Below, piece by piece: positions 1,944-8,088 of a stretch of DNA of 37,027 nucleotides. The notes below the pieces were generated by a model. The model was not told where the DNA came from. It saw only the letters and a program-made list of their open reading frames with translations, and did not search any database. This stretch comes from Campylobacteraceae bacterium (GTDB lineage: Bacteria; Campylobacterota; Campylobacteria; Campylobacterales; Arcobacteraceae): contig JABSON010000005.1 of the NCBI GenBank assembly GCA_013215915.1, forward strand, positions 1-37,027. The letters are read 5' to 3'. The translations under genes were made by a program, and so were the position numbers. How positions within the stretch are numbered: the stretch's first letter is position 1; each line of letters opens with the position of its first letter.

Positions 1944-3242
1944 ATGGATCTTTTTAAACTTAACGCACACGGGACAACCGTGAAAACAGAGTTTACTGCT
2001 GGCTTTACAACATTTTTAACAATGATGTATATCATTCCTGTAAATGGATTTATTCTTGCTGATGCAGGACTACCTATGGATGCAGTTGTTACCGCAACTG
2101 CCATAATTACTATTTTAGCTACACTTTTTTCTGGTCTTTGGTCTAATACACCAATTGCTATGAGTGTTGGTATGGGATTAAATGCTTATTTTTCTTACGG
2201 TTTAGTACTTGGAATGAAAATTCCTTGGGAAACTGCACTTGGAATTGTATTTATATCTGGTTTCTTATTCGTTCTTCTGTCTTTTACAAACTTCCGGGTT
2301 TGGATAATGACTTCAATTCCATTAAATCTAAGACGAGCAATTTCTGCTGGTATTGGTACTTTTATTGCTTTTATTGGGCTTAAAAATATGGGAATGATTG
2401 TTGATCATCCAGTAACTTTAGTAACTTTAGGTGATTTTTCAAATCCTAATGTTTTAATCGGAGCTCTAGGTTTAGTTTTAGCATTTTCTTTTTATGCATA
2501 TAGACTAAAAGGTGCATTTATATTCTCAATTCTAATAACATCATGTGTTGCTTGGTTTTTTGGATTATCTCCAGTACCTACTGAAATTATTTCGCTTCCA
2601 GCGTCAATTGCTCCTATTGCTATGAAACTAGATATAATGAGTGCATTAACTTTATCATTATTCCCTGTAGTTATTACTTTTTTAATTACAGATATGTTTG
2701 ATACTTTAGGTACTTTAACAGGTGTTGGAACAAGAGCTAATCTTTTTCAAGAAAATGACAAAAATGATAAAGCTTTACAAAAAACTTTAGAAGCAGATGC
2801 AATTGCAACTGTTGGTGGAAGTTTATTAGGTGTATCTACTACTACTTCATTTATTGAAAGTGCATCAGGTGTAGAAGCCGGTGGAAGAACAGGACTAACA
2901 GCTGTGTTTACAGCAGGATTTTTTGTTTTAACACTATTTATGTTACCACTTTTTAAATCAATACCTGGTAATGCAATTTACCCTGTATTAGTTGTTGTTG
3001 GAGTGTTAATGTTTACAGAATTAGGTAAAATTAATTTTGAGAAAGCTGGTTTCGCAACTGGAGCAGCGGCATTTTTTATTGTTATATTAATGCCATTAAC
3101 TTTCTCAATTACAAATGGTATTGCCGCAGGTTTTATGATTTATACTATAATTAAATTAGCAAGAAGAAAATTTGAAGACTTAAATGTTGGTATTTTATTA
3201 ATAACAGCAATTTCGTGTTTAGTTTTCGTATTACAAGGATAG
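1944..3242 (+). CDS. AzgA-type NCS2 guanine/hypoxanthine permease
   Basis: 432-aa inner-membrane proton symporter of purine bases. The N-terminus has the AzgA signature: 'TEFTAGFTTFLTMMYI' (about residues 15-30), then 'MSVGMGLNAYF' near 75 in the region of the first half-helices. 'ITDMFDTLGTLTGVG' near 250 and 'LLGVSTTTSFIESASG' near 295 are the substrate- and proton-site segments of this subfamily. Length is normal for AzgA/PbuG. The ATG has AAAGGG about 8 nt upstream. A phosphoribosyltransferase gene starts 4 nt after the stop, so imported base is presumably trapped as nucleotide at once. Guanine, hypoxanthine or adenine specificity cannot be read from the sequence. Confidence 0.92.
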   Translation: MDLFKLNAHGTTVKTEFTAGFTTFLTMMYIIPVNGFILADAGLPMDAVVTATAIITILATLFSGLWSNTPIAMSVGMGLNAYFSYGLVLGMKIPWETALGIVFISGFLFVLLSFTNFRVWIMTSIPLNLRRAISAGIGTFIAFIGLKNMGMIVDHPVTLVTLGDFSNPNVLIGALGLVLAFSFYAYRLKGAFIFSILITSCVAWFFGLSPVPTEIISLPASIAPIAMKLDIMSALTLSLFPVVITFLITDMFDTLGTLTGVGTRANLFQENDKNDKALQKTLEADAIATVGGSLLGVSTTTSFIESASGVEAGGRTGLTAVFTAGFFVLTLFMLPLFKSIPGNAIYPVLVVVGVLMFTELGKINFEKAGFATGAAAFFIVILMPLTFSITNGIAAGFMIYTIIKLARRKFEDLNVGILLITAISCLVFVLQG

Positions 3243-3245
3243 ATT

Positions 3246-3698
3246 TTGGAAATAGAAAAATATTATTACTCATATGATGAGTTTAGAGAAGATACACAAA
3301 TATTAGCAGACAAATGTAGAACATTTAACCCTGATGTTGTTTTAGGTGTTGCTAGAGGTGGATTAACTTTATGTCATCTAATTGCACAAGCATATAATTT
3401 AAGAAATGCGTTTACAATAAACTCAATTCATTATAATGGAACTCAAAAGTTAGATACTTTTGATATTTTTAACATTCCTGATATGTCTACTGCCAAAAGA
3501 GTTTTAATTCTTGATGATATTGTTGATTCTGGTGAAACTATGAGAGAAATTATAAAAGTTTTATGTGCTAAATTTCCAGAAACGGAATTTAAATTAGCTA
3601 CAATCTTTTATAAACCATCTGCTTGTATCCAACCTGATTATACAGTTAAAGAAGCAAATAAATGGATCGACTTTTTTTGGGAAGTTGACATCAAATAA
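3246..3698 (+). CDS. Purine phosphoribosyltransferase (xanthine/guanine/hypoxanthine type)
   Basis: 150-aa cytosolic type I phosphoribosyltransferase. The PRPP-binding loop is 'RVLILDDIVDSGET' (about residues 85-98) and the upstream loop is 'VVLGVARGG' near 33. It transfers ribose-5-phosphate from PRPP to a purine base. Size and the 'GVARGGL' segment resemble Gpt-like xanthine-guanine enzymes. The start is a TTG four bases after the permease stop, with AAGGA overlapping the end of that gene, so the pair is translationally coupled. The C-terminal 'WIDFFWEVD' is typical of this group. The exact base (xanthine, guanine or hypoxanthine) is inferred only from the neighbour. Confidence 0.88.
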   Translation: MEIEKYYYSYDEFREDTQILADKCRTFNPDVVLGVARGGLTLCHLIAQAYNLRNAFTINSIHYNGTQKLDTFDIFNIPDMSTAKRVLILDDIVDSGETMREIIKVLCAKFPETEFKLATIFYKPSACIQPDYTVKEANKWIDFFWEVDIK

Positions 3699-3708
3699 TT
3701 TATTCTTA

Positions 3709-3739
3709 AAGGCAAACTATTTTTAGTTTGCCTTTTTTT
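3709..3739 (+). terminator. Intrinsic terminator of the purine salvage operon
   Basis: AAGGCAAACTA and TAGTTTGCCTT form a perfect 11-bp stem with a 4-nt loop and are followed by a T run ending just before 3740. Confidence 0.9.
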
Positions 3740-3814
3740 ATGCTCAAAAATCATAATTTAACTTCATTTTTATTAGATATTGAATATACTTATAAAAAAC
3801 ATAATTGGAAAAAT

Positions 3815-4120
3815 ATGACATTCATAGATTTTAAAAAACTACTACTAGATGCAGAACTTACAATACCTAAATTTACTAACCTTATTAAAGTAAGTGAGAA
3901 AAATATTCAAGCTTATAAAAAGAAAAAAGAAGTTCCAAATGCAATTGCTGCAATTGCCGCTTGTTTTGCACAAATGAATAAAGAAGGAAAAGATTTTAGA
4001 ACTTTAATTACAGATTTAGAATTAAAACAAAAAGAAAAAAAAGGTTCTGGTTTTTCTGCTAAAAAGAAAGAAAAAGATAAAGATAAAAAAGAAAAGAAAA
4101 AAGAGAAAAAAGAATTATAA
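3815..4120 (+). CDS. Small putative HTH protein with lysine-rich tail
   Basis: The track starts this frame at 3728 inside the terminator hairpin, which is unlikely. An ATG at 3740 is possible, but the ATG at 3815, preceded by TTGGAA, gives a compact protein of 101 aa starting 'MTFIDFKKLLLDAELTIPKF'. Residues 1-60 read like a short helix-turn-helix ('LTIPKFTNLIKVSEKNIQAYKKK', then 'EVPNAIAAIAACFAQM'), a pattern I associate with small XRE-like proteins in Arcobacter relatives. The last 30 residues are nearly all Lys, Glu and Asp ('KKKEKDKDKKEKKKEKKEL'), encoded by long A-runs prone to slippage. It is probably a nucleic-acid-binding protein; targets are unknown. Confidence 0.65.
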   Translation: MTFIDFKKLLLDAELTIPKFTNLIKVSEKNIQAYKKKKEVPNAIAAIAACFAQMNKEGKDFRTLITDLELKQKEKKGSGFSAKKKEKDKDKKEKKKEKKEL

Positions 4121-4166
4121 GCCTTAGCTCTTTTTAGATATACTTCCTAAATTTTAAGGAGTATAT

Positions 4167-4571
4167 TTGAAAACTACACATACCACAAAACTTATACTAT
4201 TAACTGCCTCTTTTATGATGGCTCTTACAACTATTTTAGGCGCTTTTGGTGCACATGCTTTAAAAACTATTTTAGACGATTATTCATTAAATGTATTTGA
4301 ATTAGCTATTAGATATTCTTTTTATAATACTATTGCTTTATTTGCTTTAGCTTTTATATCAACACTATTAATAAATCAAAAAAAGATCAAGATTTCATTT
4401 TATTTAATATTTATAGGAACATTAGTTTTTACTTGTTCTTTATATGCTTTAGCTCTTTTAGGAAAACCAATTCTAGGAGCAATTACTCCAATAGGTGGAG
4501 CGTTAATAATTATTGGATGGATAATAACATTTTATGTAATTTACAAGGATTTAAAAGTTGACTGTGATTAA
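4167..4571 (+). CDS. DUF423 family inner-membrane protein
   Basis: 134-aa protein with four predicted membrane helices. The family mark 'GAFGAHALK' is at residues 26-34, followed by 'FELAIRYSFYNTIALFALAF' and a glycine-rich last part 'GAITPIGGALIIIGW'. DUF423 (YgdD-like) proteins are widespread and of unknown function. It begins with TTG, with TTTAAGGAG 6 nt upstream. Its 3' end overlaps the channel gene by 14 bp, so the two are probably co-transcribed and coupled. There is no evidence that it works with the channel. Confidence 0.85.
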   Translation: MKTTHTTKLILLTASFMMALTTILGAFGAHALKTILDDYSLNVFELAIRYSFYNTIALFALAFISTLLINQKKIKISFYLIFIGTLVFTCSLYALALLGKPILGAITPIGGALIIIGWIITFYVIYKDLKVDCD

Positions 4572-5358
4572 AAGAATTGAAGTAATTAGAGATTCATCTT
4601 TATTCTCAAATATTACAACATTTATCATATTATTTTATGCCTGTGTATTAGGATTTAAAACAGTAGATGAAGTAGAAACGCAGTATTCTTTTCTTCTATT
4701 ATTAAGTGATTATTTTGTAACAATATATTTTGTATTTGAATTAGCAATTAAAATGATTGCTGAGAAAAAGTTCAAAAACTTTTTTAAATCATCTTGGAAT
4801 ATATTTGATTTTGCAATTGTATTTATTACTCTTTTACCTTTAGAGAGTTCAGGTTTTGCAGCAATTGCAAGACTTCTAAGAGTATTTAGAGTTTTAAGAG
4901 TATTTACTTCACGGCCTGAGCTTAAAAAAATAATTGATATGTTAGTTAAAGCAATACCTTCTATTATTGATATTGTAATTTTAATGTTTATAATATTTTA
5001 TATTTATGCAATTATTGGAAACTTTTATTTTAGAGATTTACCTTCTGGTCTTTGGGAGAACTTTTTAATTTCAATGCTTACACTTTTTAGAGTTCTTACT
5101 TTTGAGGATTGGACTGATGTAATGTATGAAGCTATGGAAGTATATCCTTGGGCTTGGACATACTTTGTATCATTTATCATAATTGCTGCTTTTGTATTCT
5201 TTAATTTATTTGTAGCTGTAATTATTGGAGAAATGCAAAAACTTCAAGATGAAGAATTAAAAGAAGAAATTCATGAAGATTCAAAAAAATTAGATTTAAT
5301 TTTAGAAGAAATGAAAAGTCTTAAAAAAGAAATCAATGAATTAAAGTCTAATAAATAA
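4558..5358 (+). CDS. One-domain voltage-gated cation channel (BacNav/NavAb-like) with acidic TFEDWTD filter
   Basis: 266-aa protein with S1-S6 topology, acting as a tetramer in the inner membrane. S2 has 'FVFELAIK' (Glu61) and S3 has 'NIFDF' (Asp84). S4 has four arginines at every third position (105, 108, 111, 114). The pore loop 'TLFRVLTFEDWTD' is at 175-187, S6 ends 'NLFVAVIIGEM', and a charged coiled-coil tail occupies about 228-264. Residues 179-223 align well with NavAb, except that the filter is T-F-E-D-W-T-D instead of T-L-E-S-W-S-M. The TTG start has AAGGA 7 nt upstream and lies within the DUF423 gene; an in-frame GTG at 4564 is the alternative. Ion selectivity may be shifted toward calcium (see findings). 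Annotation pipelines often mislabel such proteins as potassium channels. Confidence 0.93.
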   Translation: MTVIKRIEVIRDSSLFSNITTFIILFYACVLGFKTVDEVETQYSFLLLLSDYFVTIYFVFELAIKMIAEKKFKNFFKSSWNIFDFAIVFITLLPLESSGFAAIARLLRVFRVLRVFTSRPELKKIIDMLVKAIPSIIDIVILMFIIFYIYAIIGNFYFRDLPSGLWENFLISMLTLFRVLTFEDWTDVMYEAMEVYPWAWTYFVSFIIIAAFVFFNLFVAVIIGEMQKLQDEELKEEIHEDSKKLDLILEEMKSLKKEINELKSNK

Positions 5359-6083
5359 AAACTTTTTCAATTATTGGATCTGGATATTTAGGATATGCAT
5401 TAGCACAATATATTAAAATTAAGTACTAGGTCTTCTTCATTTACTAGTTTAAATGAAGAAGGTTTAACTGTACATTTTTTAAATGAAGATATCTTAGAAA
5501 ACTTATCTTCTTTATTAAACTGTGATATCTTATTAATAAACTTACCACCTTTAAAATCAAAAAATTATTTACTTTTTTAGAAAATATATATAATAAAATA
5601 CAAATTAATACTAAAGTAATATTTATTTTTTCTACCTCTGTTTATTCAAAAGATGAAAATACGTATGATGAAAGTTTTTCTCTTAATGAAAGTTTGGTTT
5701 CTTTGGCTGAAAAGCAAGTAGAATATAAAACTTCTGTAATATTTAGATGTGCAGGTCTTATGGGATATGAAAGAATTTCTGGTAAGCATTTTTCATCTAA
5801 AACGCTAACTTATGCAAAAGAAAAAACAAATTACGTTCATAGAGATGATGTAATTAGAGCTATTTTATTTGTTATTGATAATAAGATAAAAGGGATTTAT
5901 AATTTATGTTCAAGCAAACACTTAGATAAAAAAGATAATTATGATTTTAATGCTTTAAAACATAATTATGAAAAAAGTATATATAAAGATAATAACGTAA
6001 GTATTAATAGAATAATAAATGCAAAGAAACTTAAGAATAAAGGTTTTAAATATTTATATGAATCTGCTAAAGAGTATATATAA
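5355..6083 (+). pseudogene. Broken NAD(P)-dependent epimerase/SDR family gene
   Basis: Three frames are needed to read this gene. Frame A from 5355 gives the Rossmann start 'TFSIIGSGYLGYALAQ' and stops at TAG 5427. Frame B gives 'TRSSSFTSLNEEGLTVHFLNEDILENLSSLL...LLINLPP' and stops at TAG 5578 after a T6 run. Frame C gives 'STSVYSKDENTYDE', 'FRCAGLMGYERISGKHF', 'YVHRDDVIRAI' and continues to 6083. These are consecutive parts of one SDR protein of about 240 aa (YeeZ-like). The track reports only the last piece, from 5694. The expected start codon is also lost: ATA at 5355-5357 sits where an ATGA overlap with the channel stop would be expected. At least two frameshifts plus the start change indicate a pseudogene; assembly errors in homopolymers are the alternative for the second shift. 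Confidence 0.88.
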
Positions 6084-6112
6084 AAGAGTTAAGGCATAGC
6101 CTTAACTTTTTT
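6082..6112. terminator. Bidirectional terminator between epimerase remnant and upp
   Basis: GTTAAGGC and GCCTTAAC form an 8-bp core stem with a 3-nt loop, flanked by AAAAGA on the left and TTTTTT on the right, so it works in both directions. Confidence 0.88.
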
Positions 6113-6734
6113 AATCGTTTGTATTAAACGCTCTATCACCTGCATCACCAAGACCAGGTCTAATGTAATCATTCTCGTCAAGTCTTTCATCAATTTGTGC
6201 AATATAAATATCAACATCTGGATGAGCATCTTGAACTTTTTTAATACCTTCAGGAGAACCTAAAACGTTTAAAGAAATAATTCTTTTAGGATTTTTAGTT
6301 TTTAAAAAATCAATACCATCAATTAATGAACCACCAGTTGCTACCATTGGATCTAATAATAATACTGTTCTACCTTCTAAGTTTGGAATATTTTCATAAA
6401 ATAGTTTTGATAAAGAAGTTTCTTCATCTCTTTTCATAGCTAAGAATCCAGATCTTGCATATGGTAAAGTTTGTAAAATACCTGTCAGCATTGGCTCACC
6501 AGCTCTTAAAATTGGAACTAAAACTAATTTTTGTACTTCAATCATTTGTACATCTAAACTACCTTGCCAAGTATTTATATTTTGAGTTACTGTCTCAAAA
6601 TTCTCTAATGCTTCAGATGCAATAATTCTTGAAATCTCTTCAATCGTCATTCTAAATTCATTAGATGCAGTTCTTGTATCTCTTAACCTATTTACTAAAT
6701 GTTTTACAACAACATTTGTGCTTTCTTTGTACAT
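6111..6734 (-). CDS. upp: Uracil phosphoribosyltransferase
   Basis: 207-aa cytosolic enzyme making UMP from uracil and PRPP. The PRPP loop 'VLLLDPMVATGGSLI' is at about residues 124-138, the base-binding end is 'YIRPGLGDAGDRAF' at the C-terminus, and 'VPILRAGEPML' is near 77. All are diagnostic of Upp, and length is normal. It is transcribed divergently from uraA across 118 bp. A TATAAT-like box on the minus strand (6768-6773) lies about 35 bp upstream of the start. Together with uraA it forms a uracil salvage unit. Confidence 0.97.
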   Translation of the reverse strand: MYKESTNVVVKHLVNRLRDTRTASNEFRMTIEEISRIIASEALENFETVTQNINTWQGSLDVQMIEVQKLVLVPILRAGEPMLTGILQTLPYARSGFLAMKRDEETSLSKLFYENIPNLEGRTVLLLDPMVATGGSLIDGIDFLKTKNPKRIISLNVLGSPEGIKKVQDAHPDVDIYIAQIDERLDENDYIRPGLGDAGDRAFNTND

Positions 6735-6767
6735 AATCTATCCTATTTATAAAAATTCAAACCTCTT

Positions 6768-6773
6768 ATTATA
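6768..6773 (-). promoter_or_regulatory. Probable -10 box of upp
   Basis: On the minus strand this reads TATAAT, preceded by 'ATACAG' and followed by a short leader to the upp ATG. No clear -35 box is seen, as is usual for AT-rich Campylobacterota promoters. Confidence 0.45.
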
Positions 6774-6852
6774 CTGTATAAATAATTAGGATTCAATTGT
6801 TTTTAACATTAAATTAGCTAGAATTCCAAAATTTATAAAAATAAGGTCCTAT

Positions 6853-8088
6853 ATGAAAAAAACTACGTATAATTTTAGGCTGAAAGACTCTCTTGTTGGT
6901 CTTCAATTTCTTTTTGTTGCATTTGGTGCACTAGTTCTTGTACCAATCTTGACTGGGCTTGATCCAAATGTTGCATTATTTACAGCAGGTTTAGGAACAT
7001 TAATATTCCAACTTGTAAATAAAAAGAATGTTCCTCCAATCTTTTTAGCTTCTTCTTTTGCATTTATTGCACCAATTTCTTATGGTGTGCAAACTTGGGG
7101 AATTGCTGGGACTATGTCAGGTCTTATTGCAGCTGGTATATTTTATGTATTATTATCATTTTTAATTAGAATACGAGGTTCTGGATTTTTACATAAATTA
7201 TTGCCAGCTGTAGTAGTTGGTCCTGTAATTATGAGTATTGGATTAATTCTTTCACCAGTTGCTGTTAATTTAGCAATGGGTAAATCAGGTGATGGTTCAC
7301 TTATTCTAATTCCTCAAGAACAAGCTATGGTTATTTCAATGGTAGCTTTATTTGTAACTGTATTTGCTTCATTAATTGGAAAAGGGTTTTTAAAATTAAT
7401 TCCAATTTTACTAGGAATAATTTCTGGTTATATTGTTGCATTATTTTATGGTTTAGTTGATTTTACAATTGTAGCAAACGCAGCTTGGTTTGCTATACCT
7501 TCATTTGTTGCACCTGAACTTAATTGGCATGCAATTATATTCATTTTACCAATTGCTATTGCTCCTGCAATTGAGCACATTGGTGATATGTTAGCTATTT
7601 CTAATGTTACAAAAGAAGATTATTTACAAAATCCAGGTTTAGAAAATACTCTTTTGGGTGACGGACTTGCGACTTGTGCTGCATCAGTATTAGGTGGACC
7701 TCCTAATACTACGTATTCAGAAGTAACAGGTGCAGTAACTCTAACAAAAGCATTTAATCCAGCAATTATGACTTGGGCAGCACTTTGTGCAATTGTTTTA
7801 GCATTTGTTGGGAAACTAGGTGGTTTATTAGCAACTATTCCAACTCCAGTAATGGGTGGAATTATGTTATTACTATTTGGTATGATCGCTTCAATTGGTA
7901 TTTCAACTCTTGTAAAAGAAAAACCAGACTTCTCTTGTCCTAGAAATATGGCAATTATTTCAATGATTTTAGTATTCTCAATTGGTGGAATGACTTTTAA
8001 TTTTGCAGGAGTAGGTTTCTCTGGAATTGGACTTGGTGCAATTGTAGGAATTTTATTAAATCTAATTTTACCACAGCCTAAATCATAA
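6853..8088 (+). CDS. uraA: Uracil permease (NCS2 family)
   Basis: 411-aa inner-membrane uracil:proton symporter. The substrate- and proton-binding region reads 'IEHIGDMLAIS' (about residues 240-250), and 'LLGDGLATCAASVLGGPPNTTYSE' (about 265-288) is the UraA signature that separates pyrimidine from AzgA-type purine carriers. The N-terminal part has 'LQFLFVAFGALVLVPIL'. Length is normal. It is divergent from upp and followed by a strong terminator, so it is probably monocistronic. The ATG is preceded by AAGG. Confidence 0.95.
   Translation: MKKTTYNFRLKDSLVGLQFLFVAFGALVLVPILTGLDPNVALFTAGLGTLIFQLVNKKNVPPIFLASSFAFIAPISYGVQTWGIAGTMSGLIAAGIFYVLLSFLIRIRGSGFLHKLLPAVVVGPVIMSIGLILSPVAVNLAMGKSGDGSLILIPQEQAMVISMVALFVTVFASLIGKGFLKLIPILLGIISGYIVALFYGLVDFTIVANAAWFAIPSFVAPELNWHAIIFILPIAIAPAIEHIGDMLAISNVTKEDYLQNPGLENTLLGDGLATCAASVLGGPPNTTYSEVTGAVTLTKAFNPAIMTWAALCAIVLAFVGKLGGLLATIPTPVMGGIMLLLFGMIASIGISTLVKEKPDFSCPRNMAIISMILVFSIGGMTFNFAGVGFSGIGLGAIVGILLNLILPQPKS

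What the first reader, a model, noticed from the sequence alone, without database searches (positions are those of the whole stretch)
5098..5118. Voltage-gated channel with Cav-like selectivity filter TFEDWTD
NavAb from Arcobacter butzleri has TLESWSM at this position. The engineered calcium-selective CavAb carries acidic residues at the third, fourth and seventh positions of this stretch (TLDDWSD). The protein here has acids at exactly those three positions (Glu183, Asp184, Asp187), so it may be a natural calcium-permeable one-domain channel or an evolutionary intermediate.
Basis: partly seen in the sequence, partly recalled or inferred. Interest (0 to 1): 0.75.

Follow-up and report, generated by a model that had tools for sequence, protein, structure and literature searches.

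The report
Arcobacteraceae channel with calcium-binding-type filter
The gene encodes a real bacterial voltage-gated cation channel with a natural, strongly conserved, acid-rich pore filter, but it belongs to an already described group in which the tested channel with almost the same filter passes sodium and is blocked by calcium, so calcium selectivity cannot be read from the sequence.

Summary
Window 4558-5358 (+, TTG start, 266 aa) encodes a six-helix voltage-gated channel with TFEDWTD at residues 181-187 (nt 5098-5118). The filter is not a local oddity: 138 of 209 aligned relatives (Campylobacterota and Gammaproteobacteria) carry T[FL]EDWTD. It fits the published AnclNav group (Shimomura 2020). 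NavPp in that group has native TLEDWTD, yet PCa/PNa is 0.31 and calcium blocks it. So 'acids at positions 3, 4, 7, therefore CavAb-like' is not supported. 'Intermediate' is not supported either: the gene is a deep paralogue of NavAb, and 23 of 104 Arcobacteraceae genomes carry both. The P2 helix is one residue shorter than NavAb's, with the W-to-Y spacing of eukaryotic Cav domains, and profile alignment pairs Asp187 with Gly182, not Met181. New here: the two aspartates travel with Arg178 (NavAb Gln172), Tyr190 and the short P2 (138/138), against Gln178 in 68/71 others. A Halomonas-type group nested inside the clade has Gln178, both aspartates lost, P2 length restored and a P2 proline. Best reading: a depolarisation-activated channel with a Ca2+-binding, weakly Na+/Ca2+-discriminating or Ca2+-blocked pore. 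New member of a known kind.

The parts
4558..5358 (+). Voltage-gated cation channel gene, 266 aa, TTG start, stop TAA
   Evidence: homologues begin at the same place, many with ATG
4870..4899 (+). S4 voltage sensor, Arg105/108/111/114 (RxxRxxRxxR); with Glu61 and Asp84 of S2/S3
   Evidence: These residues align with NavAb R99/R102/R105/R108, E59 and D80, and all are 100% conserved in the clade
5062..5097 (+). P1 pore helix (residues 169-180)
   Evidence: AlphaFold2 model, pLDDT above 90 in this block
5089..5091 (+). Arg178 codon, position of NavAb Gln172; invariant with the EDWTD filter
   Evidence: Arg in 138/138 EDWTD channels, Gln in 68/71 others
5098..5118 (+). Selectivity filter TFEDWTD (residues 181-187)
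5110..5142 (+). P2 helix WTDVMYEAMEV (residues 185-195), one residue shorter than NavAb, W-to-Y spacing as in eukaryotic Cav
5152..5349 (+). S6 and C-terminal helix (residues 199-264); Ala211 and Ala220 align with NaChBac Thr220 and Gly229
4167..4571 (+). DUF423 membrane protein gene overlapping the channel start by 14 nt; conserved neighbour in Arcobacteraceae

Best explanation
The gene encodes an ancestor-like BacNav (AnclNav-type) channel. It is a homotetramer opened by depolarisation (inferred from the intact S4 and conserved counter-charges). Its filter carries three rings of carboxylates and so binds Ca2+ (inferred). It does not reproduce CavAb's geometry: the P2 helix has the shorter, eukaryotic-Cav-like register, and the scaffold behind the filter (NavAb Gln172-Arg185) is replaced by Arg178 and Tyr190. 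The most likely behaviour is weak Na+/Ca2+ discrimination: Na+ permeation with Ca2+ block, or mixed Na+/Ca2+ permeation, as in NavPp and CavMr-Pp, not high Ca2+ selectivity. Shown here: gene, filter, conservation, tree position and the linked residues. Inferred: tetramer, gating, ion selectivity, and the role of Arg178.
For: Filter equals that of NavPp except Leu2 to Phe; NavPp PCa/PNa is 0.308 with Ca2+ block; CavMr with the NavPp filter gives 13.8 with PK/PNa 0.95 (PMC7041947). L176F in NavAb does not cause Ca2+ block (PMC10349818), so Phe2 is not expected to change the class. NavAb M181A is non-selective with about 10-fold Ca2+ preference (PMC12919392), and the window lacks Met there on any alignment. 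Gating residues are 100% conserved. The model matches NaChBac (6vwx, TM-score 0.76 by target length), NavAb, CavAb and NavMs chains best. D184, D187, Arg178, Tyr190 and the short P2 go together in 138/138 sequences.
Against: No recording of a TFEDWTD channel was found: the H. elongata and T. turnerae AnclNavs, with NavPp-like filters, gave no current. In a NavAb background an Asp at position 4 raises Ca2+ permeability strongly, and the beacon rule classes an Asp there as Ca2+-selective or strongly Ca2+-blocked. NavPp and CavMr sequences could not be fetched, so direct clade membership with them was not tested.
Confidence: 0.6

Rival explanations
1. One reading: a native, highly Ca2+-selective one-domain channel working like CavAb, with three carboxylate rings coordinating Ca2+ at the filter mouth.
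For: Acids at filter positions 3, 4 and 7. Asp at position 4 of NavAb strongly raises Ca2+ permeability. P2 register and TDVMY resemble eukaryotic Cav domains, and phmmer's highest-scoring PDB sequences are Cav3 and Cav2 (summed over four domains). CavMr shows that native Cavs exist in bacteria.
Against: NavPp with TLEDWTD is Na+-preferring and Ca2+-blocked, and NavPp with TLEDWSD is still Ca2+-blocked. In CavMr, Gly4 and Val6 are needed and Asp7 is not. Profile alignment takes Asp187 out of the Met181 position. The filter has Glu at position 3 and Asp at position 4, not Asp-Asp or Glu-Gly.
Confidence: 0.2
2. An ordinary Na+-selective BacNav whose extra aspartates are neutralised by Arg178 and structural displacement, with no special relation to Ca2+.
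For: Arg178 is invariant with the aspartates. NavPp is nearer Na+ than Ca2+.
Against: NavPp still lets Ca2+ in (0.31) and is blocked by it, unlike canonical BacNavs. The two aspartates are kept in 138 sequences across two phyla, and both were lost together in every lineage of the clade that changed, which suggests the charge matters.
Confidence: 0.12
3. Evolutionary intermediate between NavAb-type and Cav-type filters in Campylobacterota.
For: The filter is mixed: canonical Glu at position 3 with Cav-like residues at positions 4 and 7.
Against: Tree without filter columns: the window clade and NavAb are separated by a 99% supported branch. 23 of 104 Arcobacteraceae genomes hold both types. The filter is uniform in the Campylobacterota clade and shared with Gammaproteobacteria. 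Published ancestral reconstruction gives TLE(D/S)WTD as ancestral, not intermediate.
Confidence: 0.04

Closest known systems
NavPp (Plesiocystis pacifica AnclNav, TLEDWTD; PMC7041947)
   Same: One-domain channel; filter identical at positions 1 and 3-7
   Different: Leu instead of Phe at filter position 2; its full sequence could not be fetched, so Arg178, Tyr190 and P2 length in NavPp are unknown here
AnclNavs of Halomonas elongata and Teredinibacter turnerae (PMC7041947)
   Same: Reported filters similar to NavPp's; relatives from Halomonas, Gilvimarinus and Marinimicrobium fall in the same TFEDWTD clade
   Different: Gammaproteobacterial clade members are about 40-46% identical to the window; no current recorded; those two sequences were not fetched
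CavMr (Meiothermus ruber, TLEGWVD; PMC7041947)
   Same: AnclNav group, one-domain, Asp at filter position 7
   Different: Gly4 and Val6, the determinants of its Ca2+ selectivity, are Asp and Thr here; CavMr has a disulfide-bearing L6 extension, and the window has only one Cys (Cys29)
NavAb and the engineered CavAb
   Same: Fold, S4 arginines, acid at the high-field site
   Different: 33-40% identity to NavAb-type channels; P2 one residue longer in NavAb; NavAb has Gln172/Arg185 where this has Arg178/Tyr190; CavAb has Asp at filter position 3
Eukaryotic Cav domains I and II
   Same: W-T/V-D-x-x-Y spacing (domain I) and E-D-W (domain II) alignments
   Different: Homotetramer instead of four unlike domains; Arg178 where Cav domains I and II have Gln

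Membership tests
BacNav (one-domain prokaryotic voltage-gated cation channels) | Single Ion_trans domain, about 270 aa, RxxR S4, P1-filter-P2, C-terminal helix | tested here: met
BacNav (one-domain prokaryotic voltage-gated cation channels) | Voltage-dependent opening as a tetramer | not testable with these tools
   Monomer model only; gating residues conserved
AnclNav (Shimomura 2020) | TLESW-like filter with extra negative charges | tested here: met
   TFEDWTD
AnclNav (Shimomura 2020) | Separate clade from NavAb-like channels | tested here: met
   99% SH-aLRT branch, filter columns excluded
AnclNav (Shimomura 2020) | Groups with CavMr and NavPp themselves | not tested
   Those sequences were not in reach; Halomonas- and Cellvibrio-type relatives used as stand-ins
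CavAb-type calcium channel | Asp at filter positions 3, 4 and 7 (TLDDWSD) | tested here: not met
   Position 3 is Glu; positions 4 and 7 are Asp
CavAb-type calcium channel | Position-7 Asp at the NavAb Met181 site | tested here: inconclusive
   hhalign and MAFFT put a gap at or beside Met181; Asp187 pairs with Gly182
CavMr-type native calcium channel | Gly at filter position 4 | tested here: not met
   Asp184
Calcium-selective channel (functional) | PCa/PNa well above 1 | not testable with these tools
   Needs electrophysiology; NavPp precedent points the other way
NavAb orthologue | Falls in the NavAb clade with TLESWSM | tested here: not met

The most novel reading that the evidence does not exclude
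The acidic filter in these bacterial channels is one part of a linked module: Arg178 in P1, Asp184, Asp187, Tyr190 and a P2 helix one residue shorter, in Cav-like register. It replaces NavAb's Gln172-Arg185 scaffold, sets Ca2+ binding or block, and explains why the same acidic letters give Ca2+ selectivity in NavAb but not in NavPp. A Halomonas-type lineage has switched most of the module (all but Tyr190) to a NaChBac-like Na+ filter, a natural experiment in Ca2+/Na+ selectivity.
Probability: 0.35. Interest if true: 0.65.

Novelty: new member of a known kind. Interest (0 to 1): 0.42.

Why it matters
How Ca2+ and Na+ channels tell the two ions apart is an old question, and bacterial one-domain channels are the cleanest models for it. 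This gene adds a well-populated, uncharacterised Campylobacterota branch of the AnclNav group, often in the same genome as a NavAb-type channel. The linked residues found here (Arg178, Tyr190, P2 length) give concrete positions to mutate in order to explain why an identical acidic filter is Ca2+-selective in one backbone and Ca2+-blocked in another.

Tried and rejected
Checked whether the genome has a NavAb-type paralogue: the second Ion_trans hit (C200, L002) reads as a potassium-channel-type pore and is broken near a contig problem, so it is not relevant. Searched the literature for FEDWTD: no paper holds that string; LEDWTD occurs for NavPp. Tang 2014 is not held, so its mutants are cited through reviews. 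The gene neighbourhood is conserved in Arcobacteraceae (purine permease, phosphoribosyltransferase, DUF423, channel, epimerase, upp, uracil permease) but absent around the Sulfurospirillum and Sulfurimonas copies, so it gives no functional clue. A sign test on independent pairs for D4/D7 linkage was too small to be decisive (same direction in 4-5 of 6 supported pairs, opposite in none, p about 0.06). An in-silico selectivity calculation was not attempted: only a monomer model was available and no coordinates.

Full report
Observation. The window holds an ORF at 4558-5358 (+), with a TTG start that overlaps the upstream DUF423 gene by 14 nt. It encodes 266 aa with TFEDWTD at residues 181-187, exactly nt 5098-5118. 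Pfam Ion_trans scores E=5.5e-45. The AlphaFold2 model (mean pLDDT 80.8, above 90 over the pore) gives S1-S6, a P1 helix 169-180, a filter loop and a P2 helix 185-195. Foldseek's best PDB matches are CavAb, NavAb, NaChBac and NavMs chains. The S4 arginines 105/108/111/114 and the counter-charges Glu61 and Asp84 align with NavAb R99/R102/R105/R108, E59 and D80 and never vary in the clade, so the voltage sensor looks intact.

Relatives. One collection scan and three unnamed-genome surveys (Arcobacteraceae, Campylobacterota, Gammaproteobacteria) gave 209 usable non-identical sequences. The collection scan used FEDWTDVM among its seeds and is biased towards this filter; the genome surveys are not. 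On a tree built without the filter columns, the window lies in a 99% supported Campylobacterota group. That group lies inside a 99% supported clade of 70 representative rows with Gammaproteobacteria such as Halomonas, Marinobacterium, Gilvimarinus and Colwellia. NavAb-like channels (TLESWSM) and NaChBac lie across a 99% branch. A smaller gammaproteobacterial set carries TLEDWTD. Of 104 Arcobacteraceae genomes, 51 have the window type, 39 a NavAb type and 23 both (counted). The window's own assembly (93% complete) has only this one. The gene is therefore a deep paralogue of NavAb, not a step between Nav and Cav in this family.

What is known. Shimomura et al. 2020 (PMC7041947) described this kind of channel as ancestor-like BacNavs (AnclNavs), with extra acids in the filter, spread over many phyla. 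Two were characterised. CavMr (TLEGWVD) is highly Ca2+-selective (218). NavPp (TLEDWTD) prefers Na+ (PCa/PNa 0.308) and is blocked by Ca2+. Two more, from H. elongata and T. turnerae, with NavPp-like filters, gave no current. Changing NavPp to TLEDWSD, the Ca2+-selective NavAb mutant filter, left it Ca2+-blocked, and CavMr with the NavPp filter dropped to 13.8. The authors concluded that acidic count alone does not set Ca2+ selectivity in this group. Irie et al. 2023 (PMC10349818) note Phe at filter position 2 in some BacNavs and AnclNavs and find that L176F does not cause Ca2+ block.

Register of Asp187. From Trp185 to Met193 the window has 9 residues; NavAb has 10 from Trp179 to Met188. MAFFT places the gap directly after Trp or Thr, and hhalign with the 56-sequence profile pairs Asp187 with NavAb Gly182, leaving Met181 unmatched. 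A gap later in P2 cannot be excluded from sequence. The window's W-T-D-V-M-Y spacing is that of eukaryotic Cav domains (Cav3.2 domain I W-V-D-I-M-Y, domain II E-D-W-N-V-V-L-Y; alignments). In Cav1.1 domains I and III the position-7 side chain is shifted outward, according to PMC7041947, and in CavMr Asp7 is dispensable (D7M still 144). So the CavAb analogy for Asp187 is weak.

A linked set of residues. All 138 channels with E-D-W-T-D also have Arg at 178, Tyr at 190 and the short P2. Of the 71 others, 68 have Gln at 178 and 58 have Arg at the 190 position; 66 of the 71 have the long P2 (counted). In NavAb, Gln172 bonds to the Glu177 main chain and Arg185 fixes Gln172. Q172N abolishes current, and M181A makes the channel non-selective with about 10-fold Ca2+ preference (PMC12919392). 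The window group has replaced this support, which is a plausible reason why the same acidic letters behave differently in the two backbones. This is a hypothesis from co-variation, not a demonstration: the association is largely carried by one deep split plus a few later changes.

Later changes inside the clade. Idiomarina-type channels have TFESWT(S/A/Q) with Arg178 and the short P2 kept. Eight Halomonas-type channels have QVATFESWATAVLYP, which restores Gln178, the P2 length and a P2 proline together, next to NaChBac's QVVTLESWASGVMRP; they keep the clade's Tyr at 190. One has TFDNWAH. In the clade no member has lost only one of the two aspartates: 129 keep both and 13 lack both. Tests on independent pairs point the same way but are too few to be significant.

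Mechanism. Best supported: depolarisation moves S4 and opens a homotetrameric pore (inferred from homology); cations meet carboxylate rings at Glu183 and Asp184, with Asp187 at the first turn of P2; Ca2+ binds there and either blocks Na+ current or passes with it. High selectivity for Ca2+ is possible (20%) but has the NavPp precedent against it. Native Ala at the NaChBac T220 and G229 positions predicts slow inactivation (inference). The physiological role is unknown; many of the named carriers are marine or halophilic, which fits Na+ or Ca2+ influx on depolarisation but does not separate the two.

Verdict. Real, correctly located, strongly conserved; a new Campylobacterota member of the AnclNav kind. 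The calcium-channel interpretation is unproven and the tested precedent leans against it. The co-varying scaffold residues and the natural switch in Halomonas-type channels are the parts worth following.

Noticed in passing
L062, L066, L073, L075, L076, L079, L176 (TFESWAT channels): Halomonas-type channels nested in the TFEDWTD clade have Gln178, Ser at filter position 4, no position-7 Asp, an extra P2 residue and a P2 proline, close to the NaChBac filter: a natural switch back to a Na+-type filter.
   Followed up: partly
L034, L035, L037 (Aliidiomarina/Idiomarina): TFESWTS/A/Q filters with both aspartates lost but Arg178 and the short P2 kept: a second, different neutralisation.
   Followed up: partly
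L030 (Aliagarivorans taiwanensis): Two diverged TFEDWTD channels lie on opposite strands about 360 bases apart.
   Followed up: no
window 5359-6083: The reading frame directly downstream, an epimerase-like gene that is intact in relatives such as L092, appears frame-broken here.
   Followed up: partly
window 1944-8088: Conserved Arcobacteraceae block: purine permease, phosphoribosyltransferase, small conserved protein, DUF423, channel, (epimerase), upp, uracil permease.
   Followed up: partly
L027 (UBA1877): A relative whose channel gene is not matched in one piece, perhaps a frameshift or assembly error.
   Followed up: no
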